Positions 13,897 through 52,500 of a stretch of 64,000 bases of DNA are shown here, piece after piece. Position 1 is the stretch's first letter. Each line of letters opens with the position of its first letter. The notes beneath the pieces were generated by a model. It was given only the letters and a program-made list of their open reading frames with translations. It was not told the DNA's origin and made no database searches. Made by a program: the position numbers and the translations under genes. Origin of the DNA: Paraescarpia echinospica (taxonomy: Eukaryota; Annelida; Polychaeta; Sabellida; Siboglinidae); assembly GCA_020002185.1 (NCBI GenBank), contig CM034534.1:64779966-64843965 (forward strand). The letters are read 5' to 3'.

Positions 13897-16190
13897 ATTT
13901 AAGAAGATTTAAGAAGATTGCCACCCAGTGAATTAACTCTAGGTGGCAGGAGGACAAGGAAGCCCTTTGGCTTATCGAGAGTCCAACCCTTTTATCTATG
14001 TGTATCCCGCCCTTCTGAGGTATGTGTCGATTTTATTTTTAAACATATTCACGCTACTAGCAACCACACAATCAGCAGATAATCTGTTCCATTCATTTAC
14101 AGTCCTTTGTGAAAATGAGAACTTTCTTATATCTAATCTACACTGCTCCTTTGCTAATGTAACTTCATGTCCTCTAGTCCTTCTATCTTTCTTAACTGAG
14201 AAAAAAATATTTCTATAAATATTTTCATAACCATTCATTATTTTAAACACTTCTATCTGATCTCCTCTCAATCTCCTGGTCTCTAGTGTTTCATAACTAA
14301 GATCCCTCAGTTTTGGTATCATTTTAGTCGCTTTCCTCTGTACTCTTTCTAGCATATATATGTCCTTCTTGCGATACGGTCTCCACGCTTGTATACAACA
14401 TTCTAAATGAGGCCTCACATTGTACAGCGGTATTATTAGTTCTTTTTCCTTATACGCTATATTTCGCCTAATTAATCCAATGATTTGATTTCCCTTTGAA
14501 GCTGCAATTCCGCACTGCTCTGAAACCTTCATATCAGCACTAATGGTTAACCCTAAGTCCTTTTCTTTTACTGTAGTACTTAGTACAGTACACCCCATTG
14601 TATATTCTACCTCTTCGTTCCCATGTCCTGCGGGGAGGCATTTACATTTCCCAAATTTAAACAGCATTTGCCACTTTTCAGAGCATTTGATCAACTTGTC
14701 AAGATCATCATCATCCAAATCGTTGATATATATTAAGAATAATATACGTCCTAGTACTGATCCCTGTGGTACCGCACTCAATACCGATTTCCAGTTTGAA
14801 GCCTCCCCATCAACCACTATACGTTGTCTTCTGTCAATCAGCCATATTTCTATCCAGTTTATTATACCATTTCCTATGCTATGGGCCTTTAGTTTAAGCA
14901 GTAATCCTTGATGTGGTATTGTGTTGAAAGCGTTTTGAAAATCTAAGTAGACGATATCTACTGGTGATCCCTCATCTACCCACTTAGTGATGTCTTCCAA
15001 AAAACTTAACATATTTGTTGAGCATGACCTCGCTTTAAAAAAACCATGTTGAGATGGGTTTATCAAGTTATGTTTCACAAGAAAATCCACCATGTGATCT
15101 TTAATTGAGACTTTAAGACCTGGCGCAAGACGTTTAAAGAAGATCTGGTAGAAATGGAAATCACCTGGAATGAGGCCAAAGAAATTGCGAAAGACCGTAG
15201 TAAATGGAGAAAGCTCGTCGCCCGATGTCCCGAAAGGAACAGGAGGAACTAAGTAAGTAAAGATATTTAATTAGTCTTTCTAATAATTTGCAAATCAATG
15301 ATGTTAAACTCACAGGTCTATAGTTCTCTGACTTGTTTCTCGAACCTTTTTTAAACAACGGTATAATATGTTTGTCTCTTTCCATTCTAAAAGAACCACT
15401 CTCCCTTATAATGACAAATTGAAAACTGTTGCAAGCGGTACGCTAATTTGTTCTACAATTTCCAATAGTAGTTTGGGCGGAATCCCATCCACTCCAGGTG
15501 ATTTATTATCCTTCATAGCCCTTATTTTCTTAGCTACCATTTGCGGGGTTACACTTAATTGTCCTAAATAGTCTGAATCTGTCCACTTGAACTTAGCCTC
15601 TGGAACGGGCAGTGAACTAATATCTTCCCTGGTAAACACTGAACTAAAATACTCATTCAGGTCTTTTGCCATTAAGAATCCCTCTGATATTATATTTCCA
15701 GCACTATCTTCTAGAGGACCGACCTGATCTTGAACGTCCTGTTTGCTTCGAACATACGCATACAAACTCTTGCTGTCATGTTTTATATTACTAGCTAATA
15801 GTTGTTCATAGCTTTTCTTAGAATTTCTAATTTCAGCTGTAGCTTGGTTAAGTGTTTCTTTATAAATGTTGTAGTCTTCATCATTTCCAGTACATCTATA
15901 TGACTTCCACATCATTTGTTTATACTTAATTTTTCTAATGGCTTTTTTCAATAAGTGTTTCTTATTGGACCGTTTCCCTTTTTTGAAGGGTACAAATTTA
16001 TCGACTTTGCACTTAATTTCACTAGATAATATATTCCAGCATTCTGTTGCTGTCTTATTTTTTAGTGTGTTATTCCAGTCTATCTTTGCTAAATATTTCC
16101 TCATGTCCGTATACCTTCCTTTGTGGAAATTTCTCCTATACTGTTTTTTAACATTTTGAACATCATTGCGGCGAAAAAATCTCAAACAGC
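13897..16190 (-). mobile_element. CR1 LINE, 5'-truncated copy
   Basis: The minus strand encodes the pre-RT and RT part of the same CR1 family as the long copy at 29.5-34.6 kb, from the [14 protein letters not shown] segment (16185) to the C-terminal YLRRAGYT and a 3' tail with AAGATTTAAGAAGATT. ORF2 is broken: a 155-bp foreign insert splits it at 15107-15261, frames change around 15400, and the catalytic FADD block present in the other copy is deleted (the reading passes from INDLDD directly to DLDKLIK). The element is therefore inactive. Confidence 0.9.
15107..15261 (+). mobile_element. Short LINE 3' insertion nested in CR1
   Basis: The plus strand of this insert encodes a C-terminal reverse-transcriptase-type tail (WRKTFKEDL, KEIAKDRSKWRKLVA) ending at a stop followed by a short TAAG repeat. 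It is flanked by GATCTTTAATT (15096-15106) and GATATTTAATT (15262-15272), an 11-bp target-site duplication with one mismatch. This is a heavily 5'-truncated LINE of a different family from its host. Confidence 0.8.
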
Positions 16191-16204
16191 ACCCCTCATT
16201 TCTA

Positions 16205-16530
16205 CTTAAGGCGTCGGAATATCGGGGGGGGGTGATTGTTTGGAGGGCGGAGCCCCCTCAACATTTTTGGTGGGGCTGGATATAGGATTAATTTAGAGAA
16301 GGGTTTCAATTTGTTGTTTTGGTGAGAGCCTCGGGTGCAGTTGGTGGTTTTCGGAGAGTCTCAATGGGATGCAACTGGCGGGTTTTTGGAGAGCATCAGG
16401 AGGAGTGCAGTTTGAGGTTTTGCAAGCCTCACGAGGGTGAAATTGGAGGTTTTTGGTGAACCTCAATCCCCAGAATATTCACAACGTTCTGACGCCAATG
16501 CATTTATTGGCCGTAACTTCAAGGGCATTA
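16205..16530 (+). repeat. GCCTC-subrepeat family copy
   Basis: Several roughly 35-bp subunits of the form GTTTTTGGTGAGCCTC...GTGCAGTTGG follow a GGTGGGGCTGGATATAGG start. The copy ends at CACAACGTTCTGACGCC. It is homologous to 9600-10110, 60170-60400 and inverted 45640-45905. Confidence 0.7.
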
Positions 16531-28472: not shown

Positions 28473-31400
28473 GTAAGGTATACAGAAGGCTGTAGTAGTT
28501 TCGTGTGACCACACTCTGACCTACTATTTTATTCACACTAATGTTTTAAACTCACAATGGCTTACTTTGTACGAGCCAAGAGTCACGAATGACTACTGAA
28601 TTATTATTATTATGCTTATGAACTATTTTTGTAAGCAAACTTAATGAGACGAGCTGCAAGTTAGGTATGGACGATGTCTAACGGAGGTTTACAATAGTCT
28701 GTTTTATTAATAGTTACTAAAAGTTATTAGAGAATTACTGGTTGATAGAAAAATGTAGAATAACACGAGTAGACTGAAAGTTATTAGCGAACTACTGGTT
28801 GGTAGAAAATGTAGAATAACACGAGTAGACTAAAAGTAATTACAGAACTACTGGTTGGTAGAAAATATAGAATAACGCGAGTAGACTGAAAGAAGGTGCG
28901 GATAAAGAGAAGGAATCAGATGAAGAAACACGTTAAATGAAGGTAGTTGGGAGGAGACAAAGATGGGAAGGACACATACGGAAAATGAATGAGGAGATTT
29001 CGACACAAAGAGAGCATGAAAAAACCCAGAAGAAATTGATAAAAAGAGAACTGAAACACCGAAATTAAAATGGAGAGACAGTGTTAAGAGCGATATTTGG
29101 TATATGTTCTTCGTAAACATGACCTAAGCTGACCGACCTGCCTAGTGAGCTTACGATCGCAATAAAATAACGTTTGTACTTTATGATCACAACATAACCA
29201 TGAAGTGTAGGTTATCCTGTGCAATTCACAATTTATTGATTTACAATTTATTGCTGTAATCATCCCATTACTGTCGCACGTGCTTTGTATGTGCAATAAA
29301 ACTAATCAAGTTCCTTATCAATTATCGTCCAATCGTCTCAATAGTGAAATGACATTTATTGACACCAGGTGTGAGAGAGGTGTTAACAAACACGTTACAT
29401 TTATGGACGCTTTAGTAAACGGTACATATTTCTACCTGACATTTTCATAGCGGTCATTTCCTATAATGATATAAGAGTGTTGAATTTTGATAACATATTA
29501 TGTTCTGGAAATAAGATATTTTAAAGGTTTAGCGAGCGAGTTTACGATCGGAATGAAATAACGTTTGTACTGTGTGCGCCCATGTCACATACACGTCTCT
29601 GTTGAAAGCAACGATACAAGACAAATGTTGATTGAAACAGGCCAACTTGAACTTTCTTTTGGGGGACTTCCGGTGGTGAATTGATTTGAATTTGGTGCAG
29701 CAAACTTGCGAAAATATAAGGATATTTGATCAAGATAAGTGATATTACTGAGCGTATAGTATACATAACGTAATTATAGATATATATTAAGCAATATTTT
29801 TTTTTAAAAGTTAGCTAGAGGGAGTAATCTAGGGTAGATTAAAATTAAGCGATTTGCGAGCGATAATTGGGGACGTTAATGTAATCGGAACGTTGTTTAC
29901 AATGTAGGTCACTGGCGAAGTTAGCGTACCGTGAACGACAATAGAATAGCGTTATTTGAGATAATCGGTGTAGTTAGATGAGTAATTAAAACCTGAAATA
30001 ACAATCTTTTAAAGTGTATAATAGTACACAGGAAACAGTCTTTGTAAAGACTACCTTGTATCTAAGCCTAACTTGAATACATTGTCATCGACATCGTAAC
30101 TAGGTAAGGCACGGTGTGTCACTGTGTTAACAAATATAACTAACTATAACCTAAACAATCTGGTGTAAATTGTACACAGAAAAGTCTTTTCAAAGACTAC
30201 ATAAAAACTACTTTGAACATAAATAAATTCTGATATGGCACCTTGCAAGCGGCAACTCAGGGCAAAACGACACCTAGTTTGCAACGACTGCCAGAGCTGG
30301 GTGGATTTTGCGTTGTCTGGCTGTCCAAAATCATGGGCAGAGACCAAAGATGACGGATTCACATTTCGGTGTATGGGATGTTTGAGGGTGGAATGTCTGA
30401 TGAAGGAGGTGTGTAAGTTGACGGATATAGTGAAGGAGATGGAGGCGAGACTCAACATAGAAATAGATGGAGCAGAGAGGGATGACGCGGAGAGAGTTGA
30501 GAATTCTACAACACAGAAGGAGCAGAGTTGTGACACGGAGACTGAAGAAAGGAGACTGAGAGGAAGGAAGGTGACCGGTGTGAAGGAACAAGACATTGAG
30601 AAAACAGAGGGACGAAGGAAAAGTGTTCGGCAGAGGAAAAGAAAACGGGCCAGTGGGGATAGATCAGCAGATAGTCAGACTGTAGAGAACGAGGAGAGAC
30701 ACGACAGCGATACAGGTGGTGAAGAGGTAGATACCACAGAGGCAGTTGGTAAGACTGTGAGACAGAAGACTGATGGAAGAAGACAGAGTGTTCAGCAAAA
30801 AACAGAAAACATGACAGGCTTGAAGGTGACATGGGAGAAAGTGACCGTAGTGAAGGAGGTAGCCGGGGAAAAGGGACGGGAGAGGAGAGAAGAAAATGTG
30901 ATGGGAGGAAAGAAGAAGGGACGAAAGGAAGTGAGAGTAAATGTGCAAGAAGAGAAGATGACAGGAGGAAAGGGGACAAGAGAAAACGCGACAGGAAAGA
31001 AGGGAATGGAAGAGAATGTGACAGGAGAGAAGACGACAAGAAAAAAAAACAACAACCAGACATATGCAAACCGGAGGAGCTACTCCGAGACAGTGATTGA
31101 GGGGGCAAGGAGAAAAGAGAGAGTGTTTATGGGTGATTCAATTATGAGAAAAACAGACAAGACTATATGCGAGGGGAAGGACGTTGTTGTATGTCTACCG
31201 GGGGCTAGGATAGAGCATGTGACCGAAAGGGTAGAGAAGGTATTGGGGCATGGCAAGGGAGGGTCTATACTAGTACACGTTGGGACAAACAATGCAGACA
31301 AGGAGGGAACAACTGGGATAGTTAAGAAGTACAGACATCTAGTGAGGAAGCTAAAGAAGACAAGAGTGGAACAGGTTATTCTGTCAGGAATTTTGCCAGT

Positions 31401-34400
31401 AATGGGAGGAAGGGGGGCAAGATACAGAAACTGTAAGAGGATGGCGATCAAAGCACTAGTTGAGCAGATGTGTGAGGAAGAGGGCGTGGGATTCCTATAT
31501 TTATGGGGGTACTTTGTTGGGAGAGAAGATATGTACATGAGAGATGGCCTCCATCTAAGTGGAAAGGGGGCAGCAGTATTCTCAGAGAATCTGCTGCGAT
31601 ATGTTGACAGTGGGACAGGTTGCATCTATTTAAACTAAATTCGCAGGGGGGACTCGCAGAGAAGCCTGAAACTGGAGGCATAGAGAAAGGCAGCAAAAAT
31701 AATTCAGCAAAGAACAGTCTGGAAAACTGTTCTGAAGCTGGGTATAAATGTGTTTGTTTAAATGTAAGGAGTATAGTAAACAAAAGAAATGAACTAAACA
31801 TTATGGTAGAAGATATTGACCCTCACATAATAGGTATAACCGAATCATGGGCAACCACCATGCCGAATTGGGACTGACAGGATATGTAATGTTTAGGAAA
31901 GATAGAATAGGAAGAAGGGGAGTGGAGTTATTTTATATATTAAAGAATCTATCCAGGCTTATGAAATAAAAATTAGACACAGAAGCAGATTGCGAAGAAG
32001 CTGTTTGGTGTAACATAGTTACAGGAAACTCAACGTTAACGGTTGGATTAGTTTATCGAAGTCCAAACATAAGCATAGAAGAGAATGAAAAAATACAAAA
32101 CGCTATAAGGGAAGTGAGCAAACGGGACTGTGTTATTATGGGGGATTTTAACCATGGGCATATAAAATGGAAATCTCTACAGAGTATGGGTAGTGAGGAC
32201 CACAAGTTTTTAGTTTTAGTACAAGATAGTTTCCTTTCTCAACATGTGCTAGAACCAACCAGGGGAGAGAATGTGTTAGACTTAGTTTTGTCCTCACAGA
32301 ATGAATTAGTTGACAATGTTAAATTATGTGAGCCTCTGGGAAGTAGTGATCACAACCAGATACATTTTACCATCAAAGTAAAATCAGAAAGAAATAATAA
32401 AAAGCAGTTCAGGAGAAATTTCCACAAAGGAAGATATAAGGAAATGAGGAAATATTTAGCAAAGATAGACTGGAATAATACACTGAAGAATAAGACAGCA
32501 ACAGAATGCTGGAATATCTTAAAGAATGAAATAGAGTGCATCGTAGATAAATTTGTTCCCTTCAAAAAACAAGGGAAACGGACCAGAAAAAAATACTTAT
32601 CGAAAGAAGCCATTAGAAAAATTAAGTATAAACAAATGATGTGGAAGTCATATATACGTACTGGAAATGACGAAGACTACAACATTTATAAAGAAGCACT
32701 AAACCAAGCTACTGCTGAAATTAGAAATTCAAAGAGAAGTTATGAACATAAATTAGCTAGTAATATAAAACATGACAGCAAGAGTTTTTATGCGTATGTT
32801 CGAAGCAAACAGAAAGTTTAGGATAAGGTCGGTCCTCTAGAAGATAGTGCTGGAAATATAATATCAGAAGGATTCTTAATGGCAGAAGACATAAATGAGT
32901 ATTTTAGTTCAGTGTTTACCAGAGAAGACACTGGTTCATTGCCAGTACCAGAGGCTAAGTTCAAGGGGGCAGAATCAGACTATTTAAGACTTGTAACCCC
33001 AGAAATGGTAGCTAAGAAAATTAGGGCTATGAAGGAAAATAAATCACCTGGAGTGGATGGTATTCCACCCAAACTACTAGTGGAAATTGTAGAACAAATT
33101 AGCATACCGCTTGCAACAGTTTTCAACTTGTCATTAGAAGAGGGAGTGGTTCCTTTAGAATGGAAAGAAGCAAACATTATACCGTTATTTAAAAAAAGGT
33201 TCGAGAAACAAGTCAAATAATTATAGACCAGTTAGCTTAACATCGGTGATTTGTAAATTCTTAGAAAGACTAATTAAAGATCACATGGTGGCTTTTCTTG
33301 TTAAACATAACTTGATAAACCCATCTCAACATGGGTTTCTAAAAGCGAGGTCATGCTTAACAAATATGTTATGTTTTTTGGAAGATATCACTAAGTGGGT
33401 AGATGATGGATCACCAGTAGATATCATCTACTTAGATTTTCAAAAAGCTTTCGACAAAGTGCCACATCAGAGATTACTGCTTAAACTAAAAGCCCATGGC
33501 ATAGGAAATGGTATAATTAACTGGATAGAAAAATGGCTGATTGACAGAAGACAACGGGTAGTTGTTGGTGGGGAGGCTCCAAACTGGAAATCAGTTTTGA
33601 GTGGGGTTCCACAGGGATCAGTACTGGGACCAATATTATTCTTAATATATATAAACGATTTGGACGATGATATAGCTAGCAAGGTGTTGAAATTTGCAGA
33701 TGATACAAAAGTGTTTAGAAGGATTAAAAGTGATGGGGATAGACAGCATTTACAAGTTGATCTTGACAGGTTAATCAAATGGTCTGAAAAGTGGCAAATG
33801 TTGTTCAATTTTGGGAAATGTAAATGCCTTCACACAGGACATGCGAACGAATATGTAGACTATACAATGGGGGGAACTGTACTAAGTACTACTGTAAAAG
33901 AAAGGGCTGACAATTTGTGCTGACATGAAGGTTTCAGAGGAGTGTGGAATCGCAGCTTCAAAGGGAAATCAAATCCTTGGATTGATTAGGCGAAATGTAG
34001 CATATAAAGAAAAAGAACTAATAATACCGCTGTACAAAACAATAGTTAGGCCTCATTTAGAATATTGTATACAGGCATGGAGGCCATACCGCAAGAAGGA
34101 CATAGATATGCTAGAAAGAGTGCAGAGGAGAGCGACTAAAATGATACCAAAACTGAGGGATCTTAGTTATGAAAAACGCCTAAAAGAATGTGGTTTAACA
34201 ACACTAGAGACCAGGAGATTGAGAGGAGATCAGATAGAAGTGTTTAAAATATTGAATGGTTATGAAAATATTGATAGAAATATGTTTTTTTCAGTTAAGA
34301 AAGATAGAAAGACTAGAGGACATGAAGTTACATTAGTAAAGGAGCAGTGTAGATTAGACGTGAGAAAGTTCTCATTTTCACAAAGGACTGTGAATGAATG

Positions 34401-37201
34401 GAACAGATTATCTGATGATTGTGTGGGTGCTAGTAGTGTGAATATGTTTAAAAATAAAATCGACACATACCTCAGAAGGGCTGGATATATGTAGATAAAA
34501 GGGTTGGACTCTCGATAAGCCAAAGGGCTTCCTTGTCCACCTGCCATCTAGAGTTAATTCTCTGGATGGCAATCTTGTTAAATCTTGTTAAATCTTGTTA
34601 AACTTAATGACATTTCTTCTCTAACACATATTAAACAACACCATATATGCATACATCAATACATAGCAAGAATGCCGGCCCCAACAGTAGCGTTAAGCAA
34701 TACCTACAAATTTTAAGCATATAACATCTGTGACATCTAATTACTAACATGACTATCTACATGACTGCACTACATTTACAACTGCCACCGTAACGGTGGG
34801 GGTCACTCCGCCCACGCCACTTTCTCGTACCCTTATCAACATACTTCGTTTACCGCACTAAAAACACATTGATTACACTAGCATGATGACAAAACCCTAT
34901 GTGAAACCTCGCGTACTCCCCTGTTTCAAGAAAAAGCGTCAAGTAACAAACGTCTGAGCAAACAAGCAGTCAAAATTATACAGGGGGGAGAGTGGGCAAA
35001 ACAATGATAATAAATATAACTAAATCGACATAATTCGCAAAACTGAACAAAGAATGTGGGTGATTGGCGAGCCAATAACACACACTGGATCAATCAAGCC
35101 GAACCAGAGAGTGAGGCTGAATTTCCTTTGTAGCTGGCCTATATAGCCCCTATCATTCCTTTATATATTCTTCCGCGTTGTTCTCAGTTTGATCACTCGG
35201 GAAACCCCAGGCCTATCTACTAGAAGGCGCTACGCTACCGTTTGCCCCTTTACCACTATAAATATTGTATCCCTGCCTCACATAAAAATCAATTTATGAT
35301 CACAACATAACCATGAAGTGTAGGTTATCCTGAGCAATTCACCATTTATTGATGCAATCATCACATCACTATCGTGCGTGCTTTGCATGTGCAACAAAAC
35401 TAATCAAGTTCCTTATCAATTATCGTCCAACCCTCCCAATAGTGTAATGACATTTATTGACACCAGGTGTGAGAGAAATGTTGACAAAACACGTTACGTT
35501 GACGTTTTGGTAAACGGTACATATTTCTACTTGACATTTTTATAGCAGTCATTTCCTATAATGAGTTTTGAATTTTGATAAGATATTATGTTCTGGAAAT
35601 AAGATGTTTTATAGGTTGACCCGATGTTGGAAGAAATTAATATATTTATAATCTTAACAAAATGCTTCAAAAGAAGTATTATAAATAACATTAAACTGCT
35701 TTTAATTCAAACACATTAACTACTTGCAAACTAATATATATAAATATGTAGAGTGTAGTATGTTTAAGGCATATATGCAAATTGATCAAGCTATGACATG
35801 TTTAAATTTATCTCAAATTAGTACTTGCCAATAATTGAACAATACAACGCACACACTTGTCCATTGTCATTTAAACCAGATATTGAATATTTCTTCTGTA
35901 CACAACGATAAACTGTAAATAATATTACTGATACTGATGTTTCAGTAAAGGCAAAATGTGACACCACCGGAAGTGCATGCATCAGGTCATGCGAAAACCT
36001 AGAAAGTGGTGATTACCAGTCATGTGACGGGTGTCACGAGTATGTCACGTGCAGCAACGGGATAATGTACGAAAATCGGCCATGTCCGGGTAGACTCGTG
36101 TGGAACAACAACAGAAAGAGGTGTGCCTGGAGATCTCGCACTTGCAAGTGCGTTGGTGAGTTGTCATACATACATATATAACAACATTTAGACTGAAACT
36201 AATCACATTCTCTAACGCTAATGTCATTGCCATACACTAATACGGCTGTTTCGTGTTTCAATTAGAACCCTCTATTCCCAAAAATATAATTTGCGCGATT
36301 ACAATTCCAAACTTTCAAACTGGATGATAATAATAACGTAATTTGTCACAAACGTTTCATGACAAAAACGTAACACAATCTTTTGTGGTGTACTAAACGA
36401 AACCCCAAGGTTTACATGTATATATATATATTCTTCTCCCCCTTGCTCCCTTGCGGGGTGGGGCCCACATCAGTTCTTTCCACCTCTCGCTCTCATCCGC
36501 AATGGCCATCCATTCATGGCTGTTCACGCCAACCCTCCCAAGGTCTCTTTTTATGCTGTCGTTCCATCTCAGCCTTGATCTTCCTCTCCTTCGTCTGCCA
36601 CCCTCTTCTACTTTCCATGCTCGTTTCGCCAGTCTGTCTTCACCCATTCTATGTAATGTCCCGCCCATCTCATTCTGTTACCGGTTGCTTTCCTCATTAG
36701 GTGTTTTTTTTCCAATCCAATCTCCTCTCTCAATTCCTTCATCTTCCTTCTATCCTCTCGCGTTACTCTACATATTCTTCTGACCCAGTTGTTTTCTGCT
36801 ACCTGTAGTTTCTCCTCCTGTCTCTCTGTCAGTGGCAGTGTTCCCAACCTATATATACAGGATGGTACAACGAAGACTTCCAACACTTTTCCTTTCAGTT
36901 GTTTCTTCAGTTTTCTGTCCCACATAATGCCTTCTACCCTCTTCCATGTTGCTGCTCCTGCTTGCACCCTCCTCTGTATTTATTTAATACTCCTTCCATC
37001 CTCACACCCTGTACCGCCCAGGTATACAAAGCTGTTAACTTGTTTAATGGTCTTTCCTTCAACAACAACATGCAGATCTACCTCCTATTCACCTATCCAC
37101 ATTACATCAGTCTTCTCCAGATTTATTCGGAGGCCGTGTTTTCTGAATGTGTCACTCCATTCTTGCAATGCTTTCTGTAGTTCCTCTTTGTTATCTATCT
37201 A

Positions 37202-37278
<77 letters not shown>

Positions 37279-40200
37279 TACTCATATTACATGTGTGACA
37301 AGGCTAAACACTCCATTGTTTCTCATCTGTCTGCAGTACTGCCTAAGGGTCCTGCGATCGACGGTCAGTGGTCCGAATGGGATCCTTGGTCCTCGTGTTC
37401 AGACACTTGTGAAGGAGGTCTGCAGCAACGTGTTCGACACTGCGATGACCCGGCGCCACAAAATGGAGGCTCAGACTGCGCTGGCGTGTCTACTGAGAGC
37501 CAAAAGTGCAGTCAATGGGCGTGTCCAAGTACGTATGCACACACATGCACGCACGCACGCACGCACGCACGCACACACACACATACACATCCACCCACAC
37601 ACACACACACACACGTATGAATACATGCATGCACGCACGCACGCTCGCACACACGCACGCACGCACGCACGCACACAGTATGTAGAAAATAACACATAAC
37701 TACATATATATTTATAATTTTATTGTGCATAATATATATAAGTAGTAAAGGAGGTGGTCCAGCGCGCATGGTTAGATTCGGATGGGAGGAAGAGGAATGA
37801 CGTCATAAATAGGTCAAATACCCTCATGTAGGTCAAGGTCAAAGGTAACGTGACGCCGGCAGCGCACCCTCGCGAAATTTTTCGAAACTAAAACAGCGCC
37901 ACCTGGCGGATTTTTTTCTGGAACTAAAATAGGTTGACCATGCAGCCCCCTAGCGGAATTTTTCGAAACTAACTATGCAGGTGGTGCCACCTGACGAACA
38001 AAATTGTAAACTAAATGTTCGAGTACTGCCCAAATTCGTGCGTCTTGGTTTGACCATTAGCGCCATCTGGCGGATTTTTTTGAACTAAATTTCCCATGGC
38101 GGATAGGTCATGAACTATAAGTGGTGCCACCTAACGGACAAGTTGTAAACTAAATGTAGGAGTACTGCCCAAATTCACGCTTGCGTGCAATAGACACGAA
38201 TTTGGGCAGTGAGCCAATCACATATGTGGACAAGTGAGCGAATCACATATGAGTACTGCAAATATTCGTGTCTCTTGTTTTTGTCGAGTGCTTACTCCTG
38301 GTGGATATAGCATCATCAACTGAAAGCACCCCTCTTAGATAAGTGGTGAACTAAATAACTACTCTGCAGTTCGCGCTTGTGTACATTCTACTCAGCAGTC
38401 CGTGCTTTTGGATTTTCTACTCTACAATCTGTGATCTTTCGGCACGCCCACGTGATCTTTATGGTCTGTGTACTGGTTATAAAAGGCCTGCGTCTGCTTT
38501 TGTGGTCATTATAGCTTACATCTTGAAAATGGGTGTGAATTCATCTACTGACAACGTCCGAGATATTGCTACCGACAATGACCGAGATGTTGCGGGTAGC
38601 AACAAACGACGACACCCGGTGGCCGACCTTTGTGTCTATCAACCTGCCAAGCGACTGTCTCCGTCACTGATCACATCCGACCATCGCAAGCAGACACGAT
38701 GCCTCATGAGGTTGTCGATCGAGAAACTATGCGAGATGCGCAAGACGCGCAACCCGGAGTCTTGTCTGCGATGCTTCGTTCTCGTTAAGAACACACGGGT
38801 CCGGATAAAGCGTGAACAACAACAACGGAAACTCGTGTATCTGTCATCATCATCATCATCAACATCAGCATCATAAGAAAAATTCGACGAGATAACAAGA
38901 AACGGTTCTTTTCAGAGCCATCCACATTCTCACAAAAGAGTATTAGCTATTCTCATAGGTTAGAAATTTCGTGCTCGTTCGGCACGCCCACGTAACTTTT
39001 CGGCACATTTACTAACTATGTAAGCGCGGTGTTTTACCAATCGGACCGTCATTCGTATCACGACGACAGCACGCCTAACATCATCATGTTGAAGATACCC
39101 TACTACCGACCTCGCAATGTAGCGGACTCGAGCAACAAGGACGAGCCAACGAGCAGACCCATCATGCCGGTGACCAACCACCCTATCGGGCCATCGGAAC
39201 CAGACGTAGTGGACGTCCCAACTCTAGAAGCAAAGGTAAGTGTCGACCCTCCTATCAAGGTCAAAGGTCTCCTTATCGACAAAGTACCGCAGCATACTCC
39301 CTTCAACATCAGGTGTAGATACTGCAAGAAGGGTATGATTGTCGACGACAGGGGACATTTACAATGCGAACGACACGGTTACGTAGCCTCTGACATGTAT
39401 ATCATGGTTCAAACGGTTGCGACTGATGAGGAGGTCCTGCCACCAGCAAGATCATTACCACCATCGCTGAGACCCTTCACCTGCCCGGACTGTGGGGGAT
39501 CGTTCACACGGAAAGATAATAGCAAGCGCCACGTAACCAGCGGATGTTGTGCCCGTCGGAAGAGGACGGTCGATGAAGCCAAGTTGTATACGCCAGTGGT
39601 GAGTCATACTTTATATTGTTTTACTATATACTTTCACTTAAAACCTCGTCCCCCGTGTCTATACTTTCCCTAAAATGGCGTCCCTGTATATGTTTACTTC
39701 CGTCAAAATGGCGTCCACTGTGTCTTTACTTCCGCTAAAACTTCGCCCCGTTTTATACTTTATGATCATACAACGTGTCACCTTACTTCCTATCACGTCA
39801 CTTCTTATGATTGTTTCCTACCTAACCTTGTATCACCATACTCTAGCAACGGAGTACTATTTTCATGCAATCTTTAATATTTTTTAATGTTATCGAAATA
39901 TTCTTGCAGGGCTACAGTGAAGGTCCGCTACCACCAAAGCGGCAACGAATGGTCTCTGTGTCGTCAGAGACGATTAACGACAACAGAACATCATCGACAC
40001 CAACTTCCATTCCTAACGACGTCATAACTACCCACGCTGTCAATGTCACAACTTCTACCCAGCCTGCCAACGTTGCAATTTCCGCTCCTAACTTTGCTGG
40101 TCCGAACTTTACCATTGATTTTCCTGCGACCGAAATGAAGAAGACGCTTGCACGCCACATAGCATGTACCATCTTTGAACTCTCAAGACGACAATGCCGT

Positions 40201-43200
40201 GGTTGCGAGATAGATCATCCTAGTAAATTTCATCATGATTGCATGTTATCTGATGACATTCAAATTTGCATGCACTTTGACGAGGCTGTGGAGTCCATCA
40301 ATTCAACTGCAGTGGTGAAAGACTGTTTGAGTGTTTTGTTAGACGCAGGTGTGAAGCTAGCCGACGTGACAGTCGAACAGTTGTGTAATATCAATACTTG
40401 GTTGCAAGAAGCCGTTTCGAAACAGTGGCGAAACACTATGAAACATATGGTTCTGGCAGTAATAGAGGGTGACCTGTAAAGAACTTTCTTTTGTTTTGTA
40501 CACGATTGAACTTTGCAAGACTCTGTATCAATGTCTAATCTCTGGTTCTTGTAGTTATGGAGTGTGACATGTAAATACGTTTGTGTTGTTCACGAATAAA
40601 CTGTGCAAACCTTATCTTGCATCTTTTTTCGTGTCTGTTCACTCACTCACTCACGCATAGATACATACATAGAGATATACATATATACATACATAGAGAC
40701 AGACATATATACATACATAGATATATACACAGAGCAGACATAGAGACTTACATAAATACATACACAGAGACAGATATAGAGACATACATACATACATACA
40801 GACAGAACCACGGCGACGTCGAAAGCACTCACGCACTCACCCAATTTTTTCGAGTTGGTAGAACTTATCAATTTTTACAGAACCAGACACATCACACGAG
40901 ACTACGGATGACACATCACACGAGAGTACCGACGAGACAAGAGACGAGACTATGGCCGATATACGTCACGAGACTACATATGACACATCACACGAGAATA
41001 CGGACGAGACAAGGGATATGCCACGAGACTACGGATGACACATCACACGAGAATACGGATGACACATCACACGAGAGTACGGACGAGACAAGAGACGAGA
41101 CTATGGACGAGATACGCCACGAGACTACGGGTGACACATCACACGAGACTTCGGATGACACATCACACGAGAGTACCGTCGAGACAAGAGACGAGACTAT
41201 GACCGAGATATGTCACGAGATTACGGATGATACATCACACGAGACTACGGATGACACATCACACGAGACTACGGATGACACATCACACGAGAGTACGGAC
41301 GAGACAAGAGACGAGACTATGGACGAGATATTCCACGAGACTACGGATAGCACATCAGAATAGACGTGTTATCGCGTGATATCCCTCAAAATGGAGCAAA
41401 GCAAAGCAAATAGACGGGTTATCAAAGCAAAGCAAAGCAAATAGACGGGTTATCAAAGCAAAGCAAAGCAAAGCAAATAGACGGGTTATCGCGTGAGATT
41501 CCATCAAAAAGATGGAATTCCATCAGAATAGACGGGTTATCGCGTGAGATTCCATCAAAAGGGAGCAAAGCAAATAGACGGGTTAGCAAAGCAAAGCAAA
41601 GCAAATAGACGGGTTATCAAAGCAAAGCAAATAGACGGGGTATCAAAGCAAAGCAAAGCAAATAGACGGGTTATCAAAGCAAAGCAAAGCAAATAGACGG
41701 GTTATCAAAGCAAAGCAAAGCAAATAGACAGGTTATCGCGCAATTCAACTAGTGGTTCATTTCGTTGTTTGCATTTGAACAGTAAACACCTGCATCATGA
41801 GCTTATCTACTGTTCTACTGGCTGCCAACAAGCCCACACCATCACCGTCCTTGGCACCTTTCCGATGCCCAGATTGCAAGAGATATTTTACACGTAGGAA
41901 CAACTGGAAAAAGTCACATTGCTCACAATCACTGTAGGCCATCGACAAACACTACGACGACAAGCACTACATTGTTCAATTCACTTGCCTCGGTGCCTAC
42001 TTCGACATCTGTGTCTTTGATCCCACCAACAAGCTCGACATTCTCGTCTCCATCTCAGGCGCCTACTACAACACATGTACCCCTGACCTCAGCGACAAAC
42101 TCGACATTCTCGTCTCCATCTCAGGTGACCATGGAGTATACAAAGAAGATGGCCCTGGTCGATCCCCGTATTTTGGAAAACATCCAACCACAAGGCCCTT
42201 CTCCAGCTAATCCTATCGAAAGGGTCTTGCAACGACTCGACAGTGAAATGCTAGACATATTAGAACGAAGCGATATATACGAGAGGGAAAAGGTTGTGTT
42301 GTATAACCAGGTATTGAGTCGGTACAACGATCTTTCTGACAAACGTATGCAAGAACCCGTGCGTGTGGTCATTGAAAAAATCCCCAGTGAAGGGGAAAAC
42401 AAAGTACAACCTGCTAACGAAAACGAAGTCGTCGAAAAGGAGAGTATCGAAAACGAAATCATCGACAGCATGCCGAAAACTATGAAGCAGAAAGCACGGC
42501 GACTACTCGATAAAATGAAAGGGGCCGTAAGTTGGAACGATCGTGGCGATATGATGTACAGAAACAAGGCGGTTCCCGGAAGTAATATCGTGGACCTTGT
42601 GAATGACGTGTTGAGAAAACGGAAGTCGTTTGAACCGGTGGGATGGGAAACCTTTGCTCGTGGTCTCAAGGATATCAACACACCAATGGATTTAGTTGGG
42701 AACTCAGATCGTTGGCTTTACATGCAGACAGCGTCAGTGGACGGCGACATATCAAAGGAAACCAGCATTCCGTTTGACAGTGGTCGTCGTCGGCGTCGTA
42801 GACGACCTGCATCATCGCGGCGCGCAGTTCATTCGGCGACACCTTTGCAAATCACACGTTGGGAACCATATTAGCATTACCGATTTGCGACAAAAACCGA
42901 TTCGCGTGGGACATACAATTCACAGGAACAGTGTTCAAAAGAGCTCATATGAGGAATATTAAAATAAAATTGTGTTTATGGTATGGATGAGTGTGTTTGT
43001 TTGTTTTTAGTTTTCATAGTCATCAAGACACAACTATCTTTCCCTCATTTAACTGACAACAAAGTTGCACAATCGAAACATCAAACACTTATTAGGTTTC
43101 GGCGTCATCTCATTTGCATAGCCAATCAGACCGAACGTACATCACGTGACTTCCCTTAACACAAAAAACTATGCACGTTCATGAGAGAGGCGACATCCAA

Positions 43201-45122
43201 CGTCACTCAACGGACACCAATGTAATTAGTCAGAGTATTGCCATCTACCAACCATGACAGATCTCTATTCGTTCACACACTTCCGGGAATACTGGAAGCA
43301 TAGAGGCCACAATGACAGTCAAGTAACTTCCGGTGCGACGTCACTTCCGACCTAGCGTTCCTAGTAGAGGCTGCCATAGCAAGCGAATTTGAAAACGGCT
43401 GTGATCGAAAACGACTATGTCAATAACATGTAAGGACAATCACCTGACAGGACTTCATTCAAAGAGGTGACCATTATAGTTTCCGACGCCACTCAACGGA
43501 CACCAATGTAATTAGTCAGAGTATTGCCATCTACTGGCCATGATAGATCTCTATTCGTTGATACACTTCCGGGAATACCGGAAGCGTAGAGGCCGCTATG
43601 ACAGTCAAGTAACTTCCGGTGCGACGTCACTTCCGACGTACCGTCCCTAGTAGAGGCTGCCATGACAGTCAATTAACTTCCGGTACGACGTCACTTCCGG
43701 CGTAGCGCCCCCTAGTGGATAATCGGAGTACTACGTCACATGATGACGCCATCTAGCGGGTAAAATATATAATTACGTTAGATAGAGAAAAAAAGTTGGG
43801 GTTAATTTCGCGAAAATGTATACAACCACCTTGGTGGTTGTTTAAATTTTCGCGAAATTAACCCCATCCTACATCCGGGTACTTGACCTTGACCTTTGAC
43901 ATTGACCTACATCCGGGTATTTGACCTTGACCTAGTTATGACGTCATTCCTCTTTCTCCCATCCGAATCCAACCATGCGCGCTGGACCACCTCCTTTACT
44001 ACTTATATATATATATATATATATATATTGTTAATTGGACATATTACATGACTATAGATTCCGGGTCAACAAGAATACATATTACATGCAAATGTTGTTT
44101 ATTTTGCCTCAACTTGCCAGGTGAACCTGTCGACTAGTGTGTTTTGTTTGAATTACAGATTGTGACAGAACTTGCTATGATGGTGGCACACTTAGTGCTG
44201 ACTGTTCCCAGTGCCTCTGCACCAATGACGTCGTCGAAGGCAGGGTGACAGACAGACAGACGTCGCTGGGACTCGCAGATGTCAACATTTACACTGTCGG
44301 AAAAGAGTGGTCAGCGACACTTGTAAGTGACCGCGACGGAAAGTTCACGATTACTGGCATTTGTGCTTCTGGAATGAAGCTGACGGCGAGAAAGGACAGA
44401 TATGAGAGCGCCTTGCAAGAGTACATCGTCAGTAGTGGCAGCAGCGTCAGCATACTGATGTACAAACTAGGTGAGTACATCATCGTCAGTTCAGTACTGA
44501 ACCCAACATTAGAACAGACATGTTATAACTAGATGTATCCACCATAGATAGTCCCATAATAACTGCCACTATTAATGTCTTTCGTTTGGAGGAGGGGGTT
44601 GTGTCGTTTTCACAAATTTTCACACGAGGTACACTAATTAATGAATCACGTGCTGAGAAAGTATCAAGAAAATGTGGTTATATTTTCTGTCCAGCCCAGG
44701 AAACGTTATGAAGACTACCTGTGTCAATTTAAATTTGCCCGTTCTTGCGTGATACAAAAATACTTTAATATTGCTACGATCAAAGTACATTTTAAAGCTA
44801 GAAGCGATTTTAAGTAGGCACGTCACAACGAGTTGTTGGCTTTAGGGCTACCAGCCGGGAAGGACAGATTTCGAAGAGAGAATGGCGTTTATAAGGAAGT
44901 AAAAGGATCGTTAGTTTAGTATCTTGATATATTACATCAAATGTTTTATTTGTAGAGAAGCCGAAGTTCACGGAGGAGCCGCTGAGCACGGCCGGATTTG
45001 TTGGACGGGGGGCGAAGTTCTCCTGTCAGGCAACTGCTGAGCCGGCCGTCACTCAGTACGACTGGTGAGTGCAGCAACATGCAGGTTTGTTTGTATGTGT
45101 GTCTATGTGGTGGGTGTGTGTT

Positions 45123-49500: not shown

Positions 49501-52500
49501 TTATATATTTAATGCGATTTAATAACTTTTTCAGAAAATAAAAGGTACACAAAATGTATTGGGAAAACTTGACATTATAACTGAAAGAAAGGTGCTGTCA
49601 TTTGATGACTTAGCACGAGACTCAATTTAATTGATTACCGTCTTTTGCGGTAGCCAATAATATTCGATGTTTCGTTACGGTGTGATTGGCAAATGTCCCT
49701 AAACTCTGTAGAAGACAAACCGCGGCGCCTCATTGCGGAGTCTGAGTAGTCGACGCTAGCTGACAACCTCAAGCGAAGACTAACGGGAATTTTCGGCCTA
49801 TTGCGGCGACAACGTGCCGACCGACTCTTAGACATCCAATGTTCAGGATATAGACAACCGTCTGAGCTGATGGAAGAGATGCTGGCCATCCTTGGTAACC
49901 ACAAGCCCTGCATGTTGTTCGAGAGTGTCTTCTTGAAATGTATGCCAGAGGACATTCAGCTAGCAACGGTCAGTTTTTATGATATGCGCACCCTGGCCAA
50001 GAGTGCCGACCAGCTCTTGCAAGCGAGAGGACAACCAGCAGCTGCTATTGCCTCAAACATCATGGACCAGAACCTCGTTGTAGATCGTCTACCGCGTAAC
50101 CAAAGGTTAAGGGCCATGACGAAACCGAAATCCGCAACTCCGGCCACGAAGTCGCAAGTTAAAGAAGTATGTTACTACCATCGACGATTTGGCAATGCAG
50201 CCAGAGGGTGCAATGTCCCGTGCATATTTTCGGGAAACGATCAAGCCGGCCTTCAGTAGTTGCTTCAGCGGCCGGCAAACGTAACAGCCTTTTATATCTC
50301 AATGACGATAACTCCGCTACTAGATTTCTTGTCGACACAGGGGCAGCTGTCAGTGTGTTCTCCGCCTCTCATCAGGTCACCAACAATGGCTCCAGTACGC
50401 CTTCTCTTGTAGCTGCCAACGGATCGACTATCGCAACATACGGGACCAGAACGATGTCGCTATGTTTAGCGAACCACCACTACACATGGCCCTTCATTCT
50501 GGCCGATGTGAAGACGCCGCTACTTGGAGCTGATTTTCTTCAGGCTAATGGATTGATGGTTGATCTCCAAAGCCGACGTTTGGTAAAGGCAACTTCGTTC
50601 ACAAGTGCTACACTCAAACATTCGAACCATCCGGCACTCATTTTCAAGCCCTTCAGCTCGTCACGGAGTGAAACATTTAATTCCAACAACAGGTCCACCT
50701 GTTCACGCCAGGGCCCGCAGGTTGCCACCAGATAAACTTGCGGTTGCTAAGGAAGAATTCAGAAAGATGGATAAAATGGGAATCATAAGACGATCAGACA
50801 GCCCATGGTCATTTCCCTTACACATGGTGCTGAAAGACTCTGGTGGTTGGAGGCCCTGCGGGAATTACAGACGTTTGAACGATGTCACGATATCCGACCG
50901 ATATCCGGTTCCACACTTTCAAGACTTCTCCTCGCAACTTGCAGGCGCTACTTTCTTTTCGAAGATCGACCTGGTGCATTGTTACCATCAGATTCCTGTG
51001 GCCCCAGAGGACATCAGTAAGACCGCCGTTATCACGCCTTTTGGGCTATTTGAGTTTTTGCGGACCCCTTTCGGCCTCAAGAATGCAGCACAAGCTTTCC
51101 AACGACTTATGGACACTGTCTGCAGCGGACTCGAGTTTGTTTTTGTCTACTTGGATGACATCCTGGTTGGCACTGCATCCGTAGATCAACACAAAGACCA
51201 TCTGCGAACAGCTTTCCACCGCCTGGCCTCTCACGGTTTAGTGGTCAATGTAAGCAAATGCCAATTTGGAACAGACACTATCGACTATCTGGGCCTACGA
51301 ATCACAAGTCAAGGGGCCGCCCCCTCCCCGCTAAGGTGGAAGCTATTCAGACCTTTACACGGACTACAACTGTCATGGCACTCCAGCAGTTTGCTGGAAT
51401 GGTGAATTTCTATCACCGCTTCGTCCCAAAGGCGGCTCATGTCATAATGCATTGGCAGGCAAACCCACCACTTTGGAGTGGAGAAAGGACTTCGAGCAAG
51501 CATTTACTGCCGCCAAGGAGGCTCTGGCGCATGCCACTATGCTCGTACACCCACATGCCGATGAACCCACAGCCCTGACAAAGGATGCATCAGGAGCAGC
51601 AATTGGCGCTGTCCTGGAGCAAAACATCGACTCCTGGAAACCGGTGGCGTTTTTTGTCGCAAGCTTCGACCTCCGGAACAAAAGTACAGTGCGTTCGACC
51701 GTGAACTATTGGCAGCCTACTTGGCTATTCGACACTGTCGATTCTTCCTAGAAGGTCGCGCATTTAGGCTTTTCACAGACCACAAGCCTTTGGTTTTCGC
51801 CATCTCCAAAGCAAGCGATCCGTGGTATCCGAGGCAACAGAGACAATTGGCCTACATCTCAGAATTCATAACAGATGTTCGCCACATCGAGAGCAAGAAC
51901 AGTACGGTTGCAGACACTTTATCAAGAGCTGGAATCTCTTCAATCACCTCACCACATCCTGGGGGAGGACTACAAAGCCATGGCAGCAGCTCAGCGAGCA
52001 AACGAAGGGATTACCTCCGTCCGCACAGCCACCACTGGCCTCGTAATCCGTGACATTCCACTTGACCCCAGCGGTGAGTCCATCTGTTGTGATATCTCTA
52101 CCGGACGACCCAGGCCTCTCGTCCCTGGCACCTGGCAGCGTACAGTTTTCGATGCTGTCCATGGCTTTTCTCACCCGTCCATCTGAGCAAGCAAGAAGAT
52201 GGTCGCGGACAGGTTAGTCTTAAGAAGCAGGTCGGCATTTTGGCAAAGGTATGCCTCCGTTGTCAGGCGGCCAAAATGCATTTACACACCACGGCCCCCA
52301 TGGGCCACTTCGTGCCAACGACACGCCGTTTCGATCACATCCACGTCGACCTCGTGGGTCCTCTTCCGCCTTCACAAGGTTGTCGGTATCGGTTCACCGT
52401 GGTAGACAGGTTCGCCAGATGGCCAGAAGCCATTCCTCTGGTCGATGCGCAGACAACGACGTGTGCGAAGGCCCTTGCATTCCACTGGATTGTTCGATTT

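What the first reader, a model, noticed from the sequence alone, without database searches (positions are those of the whole stretch)
37741..44003. A 6.26-kb terminal-inverted-repeat element with a gene set I cannot assign to any known transposon
The sequence shows about 110-bp TIRs beginning AGTAGTAAAGG, TATATA on both sides, and three candidate genes with their own promoter or polyadenylation signals, one of them spliced. No transposase, integrase or polymerase is recognised. AG ends and a 6-bp duplication fit Maverick/Polinton-type integration (established for that group), which would make this a small non-autonomous or cargo-carrying derivative. That it was mobilised as a unit is inference. 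It sits in an intron of a matrix gene, in the same orientation.
Basis: partly seen in the sequence, partly recalled or inferred. Interest (0 to 1): 0.92.

Follow-up and report, generated by a model that had tools for sequence, protein, structure and literature searches.

The report
Small virus-like Maverick derivative in intron
A 6.3-kb stretch inside an intron of an animal gene is a mobile DNA element with the exact ends of a Maverick (a virus-like giant transposon); it lacks the copying and integration genes, keeps three genes of its own, and has many relatives in the same genome, some of them larger and carrying those missing genes.

Summary
The element (37741-44003) has 106/112-nt inverted ends, starts AGTAGT and ends ACTACT, the commonest published end motif of vertebrate Mavericks. 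Its TATATA flank lies in a TA array, so this copy alone shows no target duplication. In the same genome the left end has 41 matches; 37 of 39 readable ends start AGTAGT. Of six sibling pairs, three have perfect 6-bp duplications, one has one mismatch, two have inverted flanks. One sibling (11.4 kb, perfect duplication) carries a broken type-B polymerase plus relatives of genes B and C. All three loci found with a polymerase profile encode a relative of protein C, between an ATPase-like gene and an integrase. So C is a Maverick gene, and this is a small non-autonomous Maverick-type element, probably copied and integrated in trans. A-B-C recur in the same order at two further loci; C shows purifying selection (dN/dS 0.14-0.23 against eight copies). 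A resembles a SERTA cell-cycle motif, below Pfam's cut-off. Both subterminal regions hold CTCF-like motifs, all in one direction. New variant of a known kind.

The parts
37741..37846 (+). left terminal inverted repeat, begins AGTAGTAAAGG
   Evidence: 41 matches in own genome
43892..44003 (-). right terminal inverted repeat, ends ACTACT
37735..37740 (.). left flank TATATA (possible target duplication, ambiguous in a TA array)
44004..44009 (.). right flank TATATA (same caveat)
37896..38137 (-). left subterminal region with 4 CTCF-like motifs (37896, 37943, 38060, 38124), all minus strand
   Evidence: consensus recalled
38431..38460 (+). promoter-like box with CGGCACGCCCACGT upstream of gene A; second copy 38971-39000 upstream of gene B
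   Evidence: (D11)
38478..38486 (+). TATA box TATAAAAGG of gene A
   Evidence: read directly
38529..38876 (+). gene A, 115 aa, SERTA-like motif at residues 59-96
   Evidence: PF06031 E 0.0022, 18.1 bits against cut-off 25, profile 1-36 of 36
39086..39598 (+). gene B exon 1, 171 codons, zinc ribbon and C2H2-like finger (both below Pfam cut-off)
39599..39909 (+). gene B intron (GTGAGT...TTGCAG), 311 nt, predicted
39910..40479 (+). gene B exon 2, 189 aa, CxxC...HPSK...HxC domain
   Evidence: 38 homologues at E<=0.001
40656..41737 (.). tandem-repeat arrays between B and C
41797..41937 (+). 46-aa frame C0 with a C2H2-like finger resembling that of B; a different frame from C
42131..42874 (+). gene C, 247 aa, Maverick-encoded family
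43196..43759 (+). right subterminal repeats (ACTTCCGG and ACGTCA motifs) with 3 CTCF-like motifs (43524, 43705, 43746) on the minus strand

Best explanation
The element is a non-autonomous member of a Maverick/Polinton (adintovirus-like) family. It keeps Maverick ends (AGTAGT...ACTACT) and one arm of a parental gene set (A, B, C) and has no recognisable polymerase, ATPase, integrase or capsid gene. It was most likely copied as linear DNA by the PolB of a full Maverick and inserted by that Maverick's rve-chromodomain integrase with a 6-bp staggered cut. Shown here: ends, multi-copy family, 6-bp duplications in siblings, a PolB-bearing sibling with the same ends, C as a Maverick gene. Inferred: trans-mobilisation, the roles of A (cell-cycle regulator) and B (DNA-binding regulator, part of which resembles the PolB N-terminus), and of the CTCF-like arrays.
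For: End motif identical to published (AGT)2//(ACT)2. Own genome: 41 TIR matches; 37 of 39 readable ends AGTAGT, the window's two included. Perfect 6-bp duplications GTAGGC, CTAGTG, CTCGTG in 3 of 6 sibling pairs, 1 with one mismatch. L027/L028, 11.4 kb, same TIR family, perfect duplication, broken PolB (five main pieces between residues 142 and 1176, 45-52% identity to L037 PolB) plus C (84 and 86% in two pieces) and B pieces. All 3 PF03175 loci carry a C homologue at 44-48%; in all three the order is PolB, ATPase-like, C, integrase, LPSN frame (L039 in broken pieces). The integrase of L037 matches integrase cores and chromodomains in the PDB (E 6e-4 to 1e-3). A-B-C in the same order at L032 and L036; beside L032 lie ATPase, integrase and two LPSN frames on the other strand. 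C: dN/dS 0.14-0.23 against eight copies; 138 of the 150 best-scored genomic matches lack a stop.
Against: At this copy the 6-bp duplication cannot be told from the TA array. Two of six sibling pairs have inverted, not direct, flanks. A seventh locus (C14:13.85-13.87 Mb, A-B-C plus integrase) has AGTAGT at both sides, but its flanks TATTGC and CCCATC do not match and its two ends differ in sequence (read). The ends of the intact L037 Maverick were not determined; the window element shares with L037, L045, L046, L038 and L039 only gene C and 92 nt of simple repeat. Gene B has a predicted intron, whereas intact vertebrate Mavericks are reported intronless. No empty site was examined.
Confidence: 0.9

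Rival explanations
1. A one-off decay product: an internal deletion of a larger A-B-C-carrying Maverick, not a lineage that spreads as a small unit.
For: Larger relatives with A-B-C plus ATPase, integrase and LPSN frames (L032/L070) or PolB (L027) exist; sibling pairs vary in size (0.39, 3.1, 6.7, 6.9, 10.9, 11.4 kb). No second 6.3-kb copy with the whole gene set was seen, but most of the other TIR matches were fetched with only about 200 bases on each side, so this was not tested.
Against: A, B and C are intact although the TIR arms differ at 6 of 106 sites; if the arms were identical at insertion, random substitution at half that rate leaves no stop in 13% of simulations, indels not counted. 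Weak.
Confidence: 0.5
2. An independent cut-and-paste DNA transposon with TA or 8-bp duplications.
For: The local flank permits 2-, 4-, 6- or 8-nt duplications.
Against: Three siblings show 6-bp duplications at non-TA sites; published Maverick end motif; no transposase recognised; Maverick genes in a sibling with the same ends.
Confidence: 0.03
3. The inverted repeats belong to two unrelated repeats that happen to face each other.
For: Some TIR ends in the genome lie in inverted duplications or share one flank (L022, L024; four ends with flank TGTTCCAGTC).
Against: Here both ends stop exactly at AGTAGT/ACTACT with arms alike at 100 of 106 sites and the same motif type inside both; three sibling pairs are bounded by perfect 6-bp direct repeats.
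Confidence: 0.03

Closest known systems
Maverick/Polinton elements (vertebrate set of PMC8097293; section 7 and passages read)
   Same: (AGT)2//(ACT)2 ends, 6-bp duplications in siblings, TIR length within 46-1447 bp, accessory genes near the termini
   Different: 6.26 kb instead of 12.7-24.6 kb; no core gene recognised; gene B has a predicted intron
Adintoviruses (PolB, integrase with C-terminal chromodomain; passages of PMC11071296)
   Same: the full relatives in this genome have PolB and a chromodomain integrase, and encode a C homologue
   Different: the window element has neither gene, and no capsid gene was identified in it
Virophages and satellite viruses (comparison from general knowledge, recalled)
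   Same: small, with the ends of a larger virus-like element, needing its enzymes by inference
   Different: no capsid gene here; helper dependence not shown

Membership tests
Maverick/Polinton | conserved end motif (AGT)2//(ACT)2 or (AG)3//(CT)3 | tested here: met
   AGTAGT at 37741, ACTACT to 44003; 37 of 39 readable genomic ends AGTAGT
Maverick/Polinton | 6-bp target-site duplication | tested here: inconclusive
   ambiguous at this copy (TA array); perfect in 3, one mismatch in 1 and inverted flanks in 2 of 6 sibling pairs; a seventh locus does not match
Maverick/Polinton | terminal inverted repeats of 46-1447 bp | tested here: met
   106/112 nt (range)
Maverick/Polinton | protein-primed PolB, rve integrase, packaging ATPase, protease, capsid genes in the element | tested here: not met
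   none recognised in the gene frames or 20 further frames; so filed as a non-autonomous derivative, not a Maverick proper
Maverick/Polinton | size 12.7-24.6 kb (intact vertebrate elements) | tested here: not met
   6,263 bp; range
Maverick/Polinton | encodes at least one gene of full Mavericks | tested here: met
   C homologue in all 3 PolB loci, between ATPase-like and integrase genes
SERTA-domain protein (gene A) | score above the Pfam gathering cut-off | tested here: not met
   18.1 bits against 25; E 0.0022 over profile 1-36/36; best E among 9 shuffles and the reversed protein 0.071
Satellite or virophage-like element | depends on enzymes of a helper | not testable with these tools
   inferred from missing genes and shared ends only
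Tc1/mariner (TA duplication) | TA target duplication | tested here: not met
   sibling insertions with 6-bp duplications GTAGGC, CTAGTG, CTCGTG; the window copy itself would permit TA

The most novel reading that the evidence does not exclude
A satellite lineage of Mavericks: small elements that keep only Maverick ends and a regulatory cassette (a captured SERTA-type cell-cycle regulator, a spliced zinc-finger protein derived in part from the PolB N-terminus, and the Maverick protein C), use full Mavericks for replication and integration, and mark their borders with oriented CTCF-like arrays. A virophage-like parasite of a virus-like transposon in an animal genome.
Probability: 0.25. Interest if true: 0.85.

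Novelty: new variant of a known kind. Interest (0 to 1): 0.62.

Why it matters
Small non-autonomous Mavericks seem little described: a full-text search for the phrases 'non-autonomous/nonautonomous Polinton/Maverick' found no paper using them (held open-access library and exact phrases only). Here ends, duplications, a PolB-bearing sibling and a shared gene can be read in one genome, so trans-mobilisation, the role of the large unnamed C family (920 relatives at E<=0.001 by profile; no convincing Pfam match in 17 members scanned) and gene capture by Mavericks become testable.

Tried and rejected

IMG/VR scans: C, 31 pattern stretches, none confirmed; B exon 2, 162, none; a C motif, 13 loci, none a relative; TIR, 0; a small frame seen upstream of C in P0016, 0. 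That small frame has no counterpart in the element (best of the three upstream pieces E 0.10). Rfam: nothing at gathering scores; tRNA: none. A shared contig length between a C and a B homologue (298,951) suggested linkage in another genome (0.0035 by jittered lengths; compared were the 160 C rows and 38 B rows that were listed); it is superseded by the own-genome loci. Copy numbers of A and B in the own genome could not be obtained (B; A; none answered). The 10.9-kb sibling L025/L026 gave no match to A, B, C or the six L037 frames; three of its four long frames are tandem-repeat translations.

The CTCF consensus was chosen after I had seen the repeats, so its expected counts are post hoc. The literature searches for SERTA or CTCF together with Mavericks listed no paper on point by title; the listings only were seen.

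Full report
Observation. The inverted repeats, the AGTAGT/ACTACT ends, the TATATA flanks, the three genes and the CILP-like host gene are there. The arms align over 106 columns with 6 mismatches and one 6-nt gap. By my reading of the host splice sites the intron without the element would be about 370 nt. The flank is a TA array, so the local duplication is not readable. No other copy lies in the window.

End motif. PMC8097293 (section 7 read in full, other passages by search) reports 5'-(AGT)2//(ACT)2-3' as the most common end motif of vertebrate Mavericks, with 6-bp duplications, TIRs of 46-1447 bp and sizes of 12.7-24.6 kb. The window element matches the motif exactly and the TIR range, not the size.

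Own genome. The assembly is 1.084 Gb in 3111 contigs; the window is on C4. The left end (160 nt) gave 41 matches, with 40 of 384 first-look candidates scored, so this is a lower bound. I fetched 40 of the 41 places (C6:15261402 was left out). Counting each place once (L016-L021 dropped, as longer loci cover them) and adding one weaker end found inside L042, 39 ends are readable, the window's two included: 37 AGTAGT, 1 AGCAGT, 1 TCGAGT; two more (L024) aligned only from base 20 but read AGTAGT directly. Not all are independent: four ends share one flank, the two ends of L022 share one, two on C549 share another. Six sibling pairs were examined: C1:78.54 Mb (10.9 kb, GTAGGC/GTAGGC), C2:60.87 Mb (11.4 kb, CTAGTG/CTAGTG) and C7:7.01 Mb (6.9 kb, CTCGTG/CTCGTG) have perfect 6-bp duplications; C14:9.37 Mb (394 bp) has TGAGTT/TTAGTT; C2:10.17 Mb and C6:56.77 Mb have inverted flanks, palindromic for 53 and 75 nt.

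Link to Mavericks. The polymerase family PF03175 rang at three places (338 candidates, 91 scored; 0 of 14 control genomes). All three loci (L037, L038, L039) carry a C homologue at 44-48% identity over residues 1-199. In L037, minus strand, the order is PolB (1462 aa), a 205-aa P-loop protein (GPTGCGKTTF; called ATPase by a recalled motif; no PDB match), the C homologue (253 aa), an integrase (368 aa) and a 268-aa LPSNAS-type frame that I take for a virion-type gene by recall only. L038 is a near-identical copy (95-100% for the parts matched, 81-89% for the sixth frame) and L039 a broken one, in the same order. The integrase matches PDB integrase cores at residues 100-233 (retroviral by recall) and chromodomains at 328-361 (E 6e-4 to 1e-3). 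The 11.4-kb sibling with the same TIRs and a perfect duplication holds a PolB broken into pieces (residues 142-1176, 45-52% in the five main pieces) with C and B relatives. On C6, L072 and L041 (20 kb together) hold LPSN, integrase, C, ATPase, PolB and B pieces and one TIR end; they were not shown to be one element. On C14, L070 and L032 put ATPase, integrase and two LPSN frames on one strand and C, B, A on the other, between AGTAGT ends 13.7 kb apart (C14:13854462-13868178, read); the flanks TATTGC and CCCATC do not match and the two ends differ, so I do not claim one intact insertion.

The cassette. A, B and C occur in the same order in L032 (A 82%, B 72 and 63%, C 95.5%) and L036 (A 89 and 72% in two pieces, B 72 and 63%, C twice in tandem, 92 and 93.5%). 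C is very abundant: 150 of 4565 first-look candidates were scored, all 150 match at 90-100% identity, 12 with a stop inside by my count of the table; one is the window itself, and these are the best-scoring, so intact copies are favoured. Eight full-length C copies from the fetched loci give dN/dS 0.14-0.23 against the window copy; broken or partial copies (L027, L040, one in L033) were left out. In the protein collection C has 308 relatives by sequence and 920 by profile (E<=0.001; 7997 candidates scored), B exon 2 has 38; none of the listed rows bears a name.

Functions. A: SERTA motif over the whole profile, E 0.0022, below Pfam's cut-off; none of 20 other frames reached 0.1 and the best of ten control sequences was 0.071. 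[quoted passage not shown] B: TFIIB-type ribbon (E 4e-4, below cut-off) and a C2H2-like finger (E 0.003, below cut-off); residues 67-154 resemble PolB residues 1-77 of L037 (29%, E 8e-6). These roles are inference.

Regulatory ends. With a recalled CTCF consensus (CCASYAGRKGGCRS, up to 2 mismatches), chosen after seeing the repeats, the left subterminal region has 4 sites and the right 3, against 0.09 expected in each; the coding part has none, the other 57.7 kb of the window 11. All seven point the same way. Of 300 permuted consensuses none reached 7. Some sites lie in related repeats, so they are not seven independent events. Binding is untested; they might equally be sites for an element protein.

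Mechanism and rank. Most likely the element is copied and inserted by enzymes of full Mavericks. Whether it is a spreading small lineage or one deletion product is open. I rate it a new variant of a known kind: a non-autonomous Maverick with a recurrent accessory cassette.

Noticed in passing
L022 (C2:10167264-10170407) and L024 (C6:56767647-56774369); also L045/L068 on C13: TIR-bounded copies whose host flanks are inverted copies of each other (perfect for 53 and 75 nt; 94% over about 297 nt between L045 and L068): inverted duplications that include the flank, either real fold-back events or assembly artefacts.
   Followed up: partly
own genome: C1009, C1312, C13:14.21 Mb, C5:46.99 Mb, C5:23.39 Mb, C10:29.34 Mb; C1599, C1169: Six facing inverted pairs of C genes 1.9-3.2 kb apart, and two tandem pairs about 1.24 kb apart, among the 150 listed matches.
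   Followed up: no
37741-37846 and 43868-44003: Both ends hold TGACGTCA and several TCAAGGTCA/TGACCT units (nuclear-receptor-like half-sites, motif recalled); the C14 relative has several copies of AAGTACCCGGATGTAGGTCAAGG inside its ends.
   Followed up: partly
38431-38460 and 38971-39000: Genes A and B share the upstream box CGGCACGCCCACGT; the 30-nt repeats end about 69 and 86 nt before the start codons.
   Followed up: no
30223-31638 +: A 471-aa frame ahead of a LINE-like endonuclease/RT has a GDSL-type esterase domain (Pfam E 5e-9), as in ORF1 of some LINEs (recalled).
   Followed up: partly
13996-16257 - and 31970-34494 +: Two LINE-like copies in opposite orientation, 88-91% identical; further repeat pairs 5998-8296/54068-56132 and 8765-10685/59504-60970.
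   Followed up: no
49750-53269 +: LTR-retroelement-like frames with reverse transcriptase and rve integrase (Pfam E 6e-32 and 3e-12).
   Followed up: partly
L025/L026 (C1:78541700-78552627): 10.9-kb sibling with Maverick ends and a perfect duplication but largely tandem-repeat frames; no match to A, B, C or the six L037 frames.
   Followed up: partly
L068 299 onward (C13:32581198): Another AGTAGTAATATAGG end begins next to the C13 Maverick region, with a B exon 1 relative (66% over 71 residues) 2.5 kb further in.
   Followed up: no
L037 and L038 (C13 and C5): Two PolB Maverick loci on different contigs are nearly identical (PolB 97%, ATPase-like 100%, integrase 98%), which points to recent movement or duplication.
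   Followed up: no
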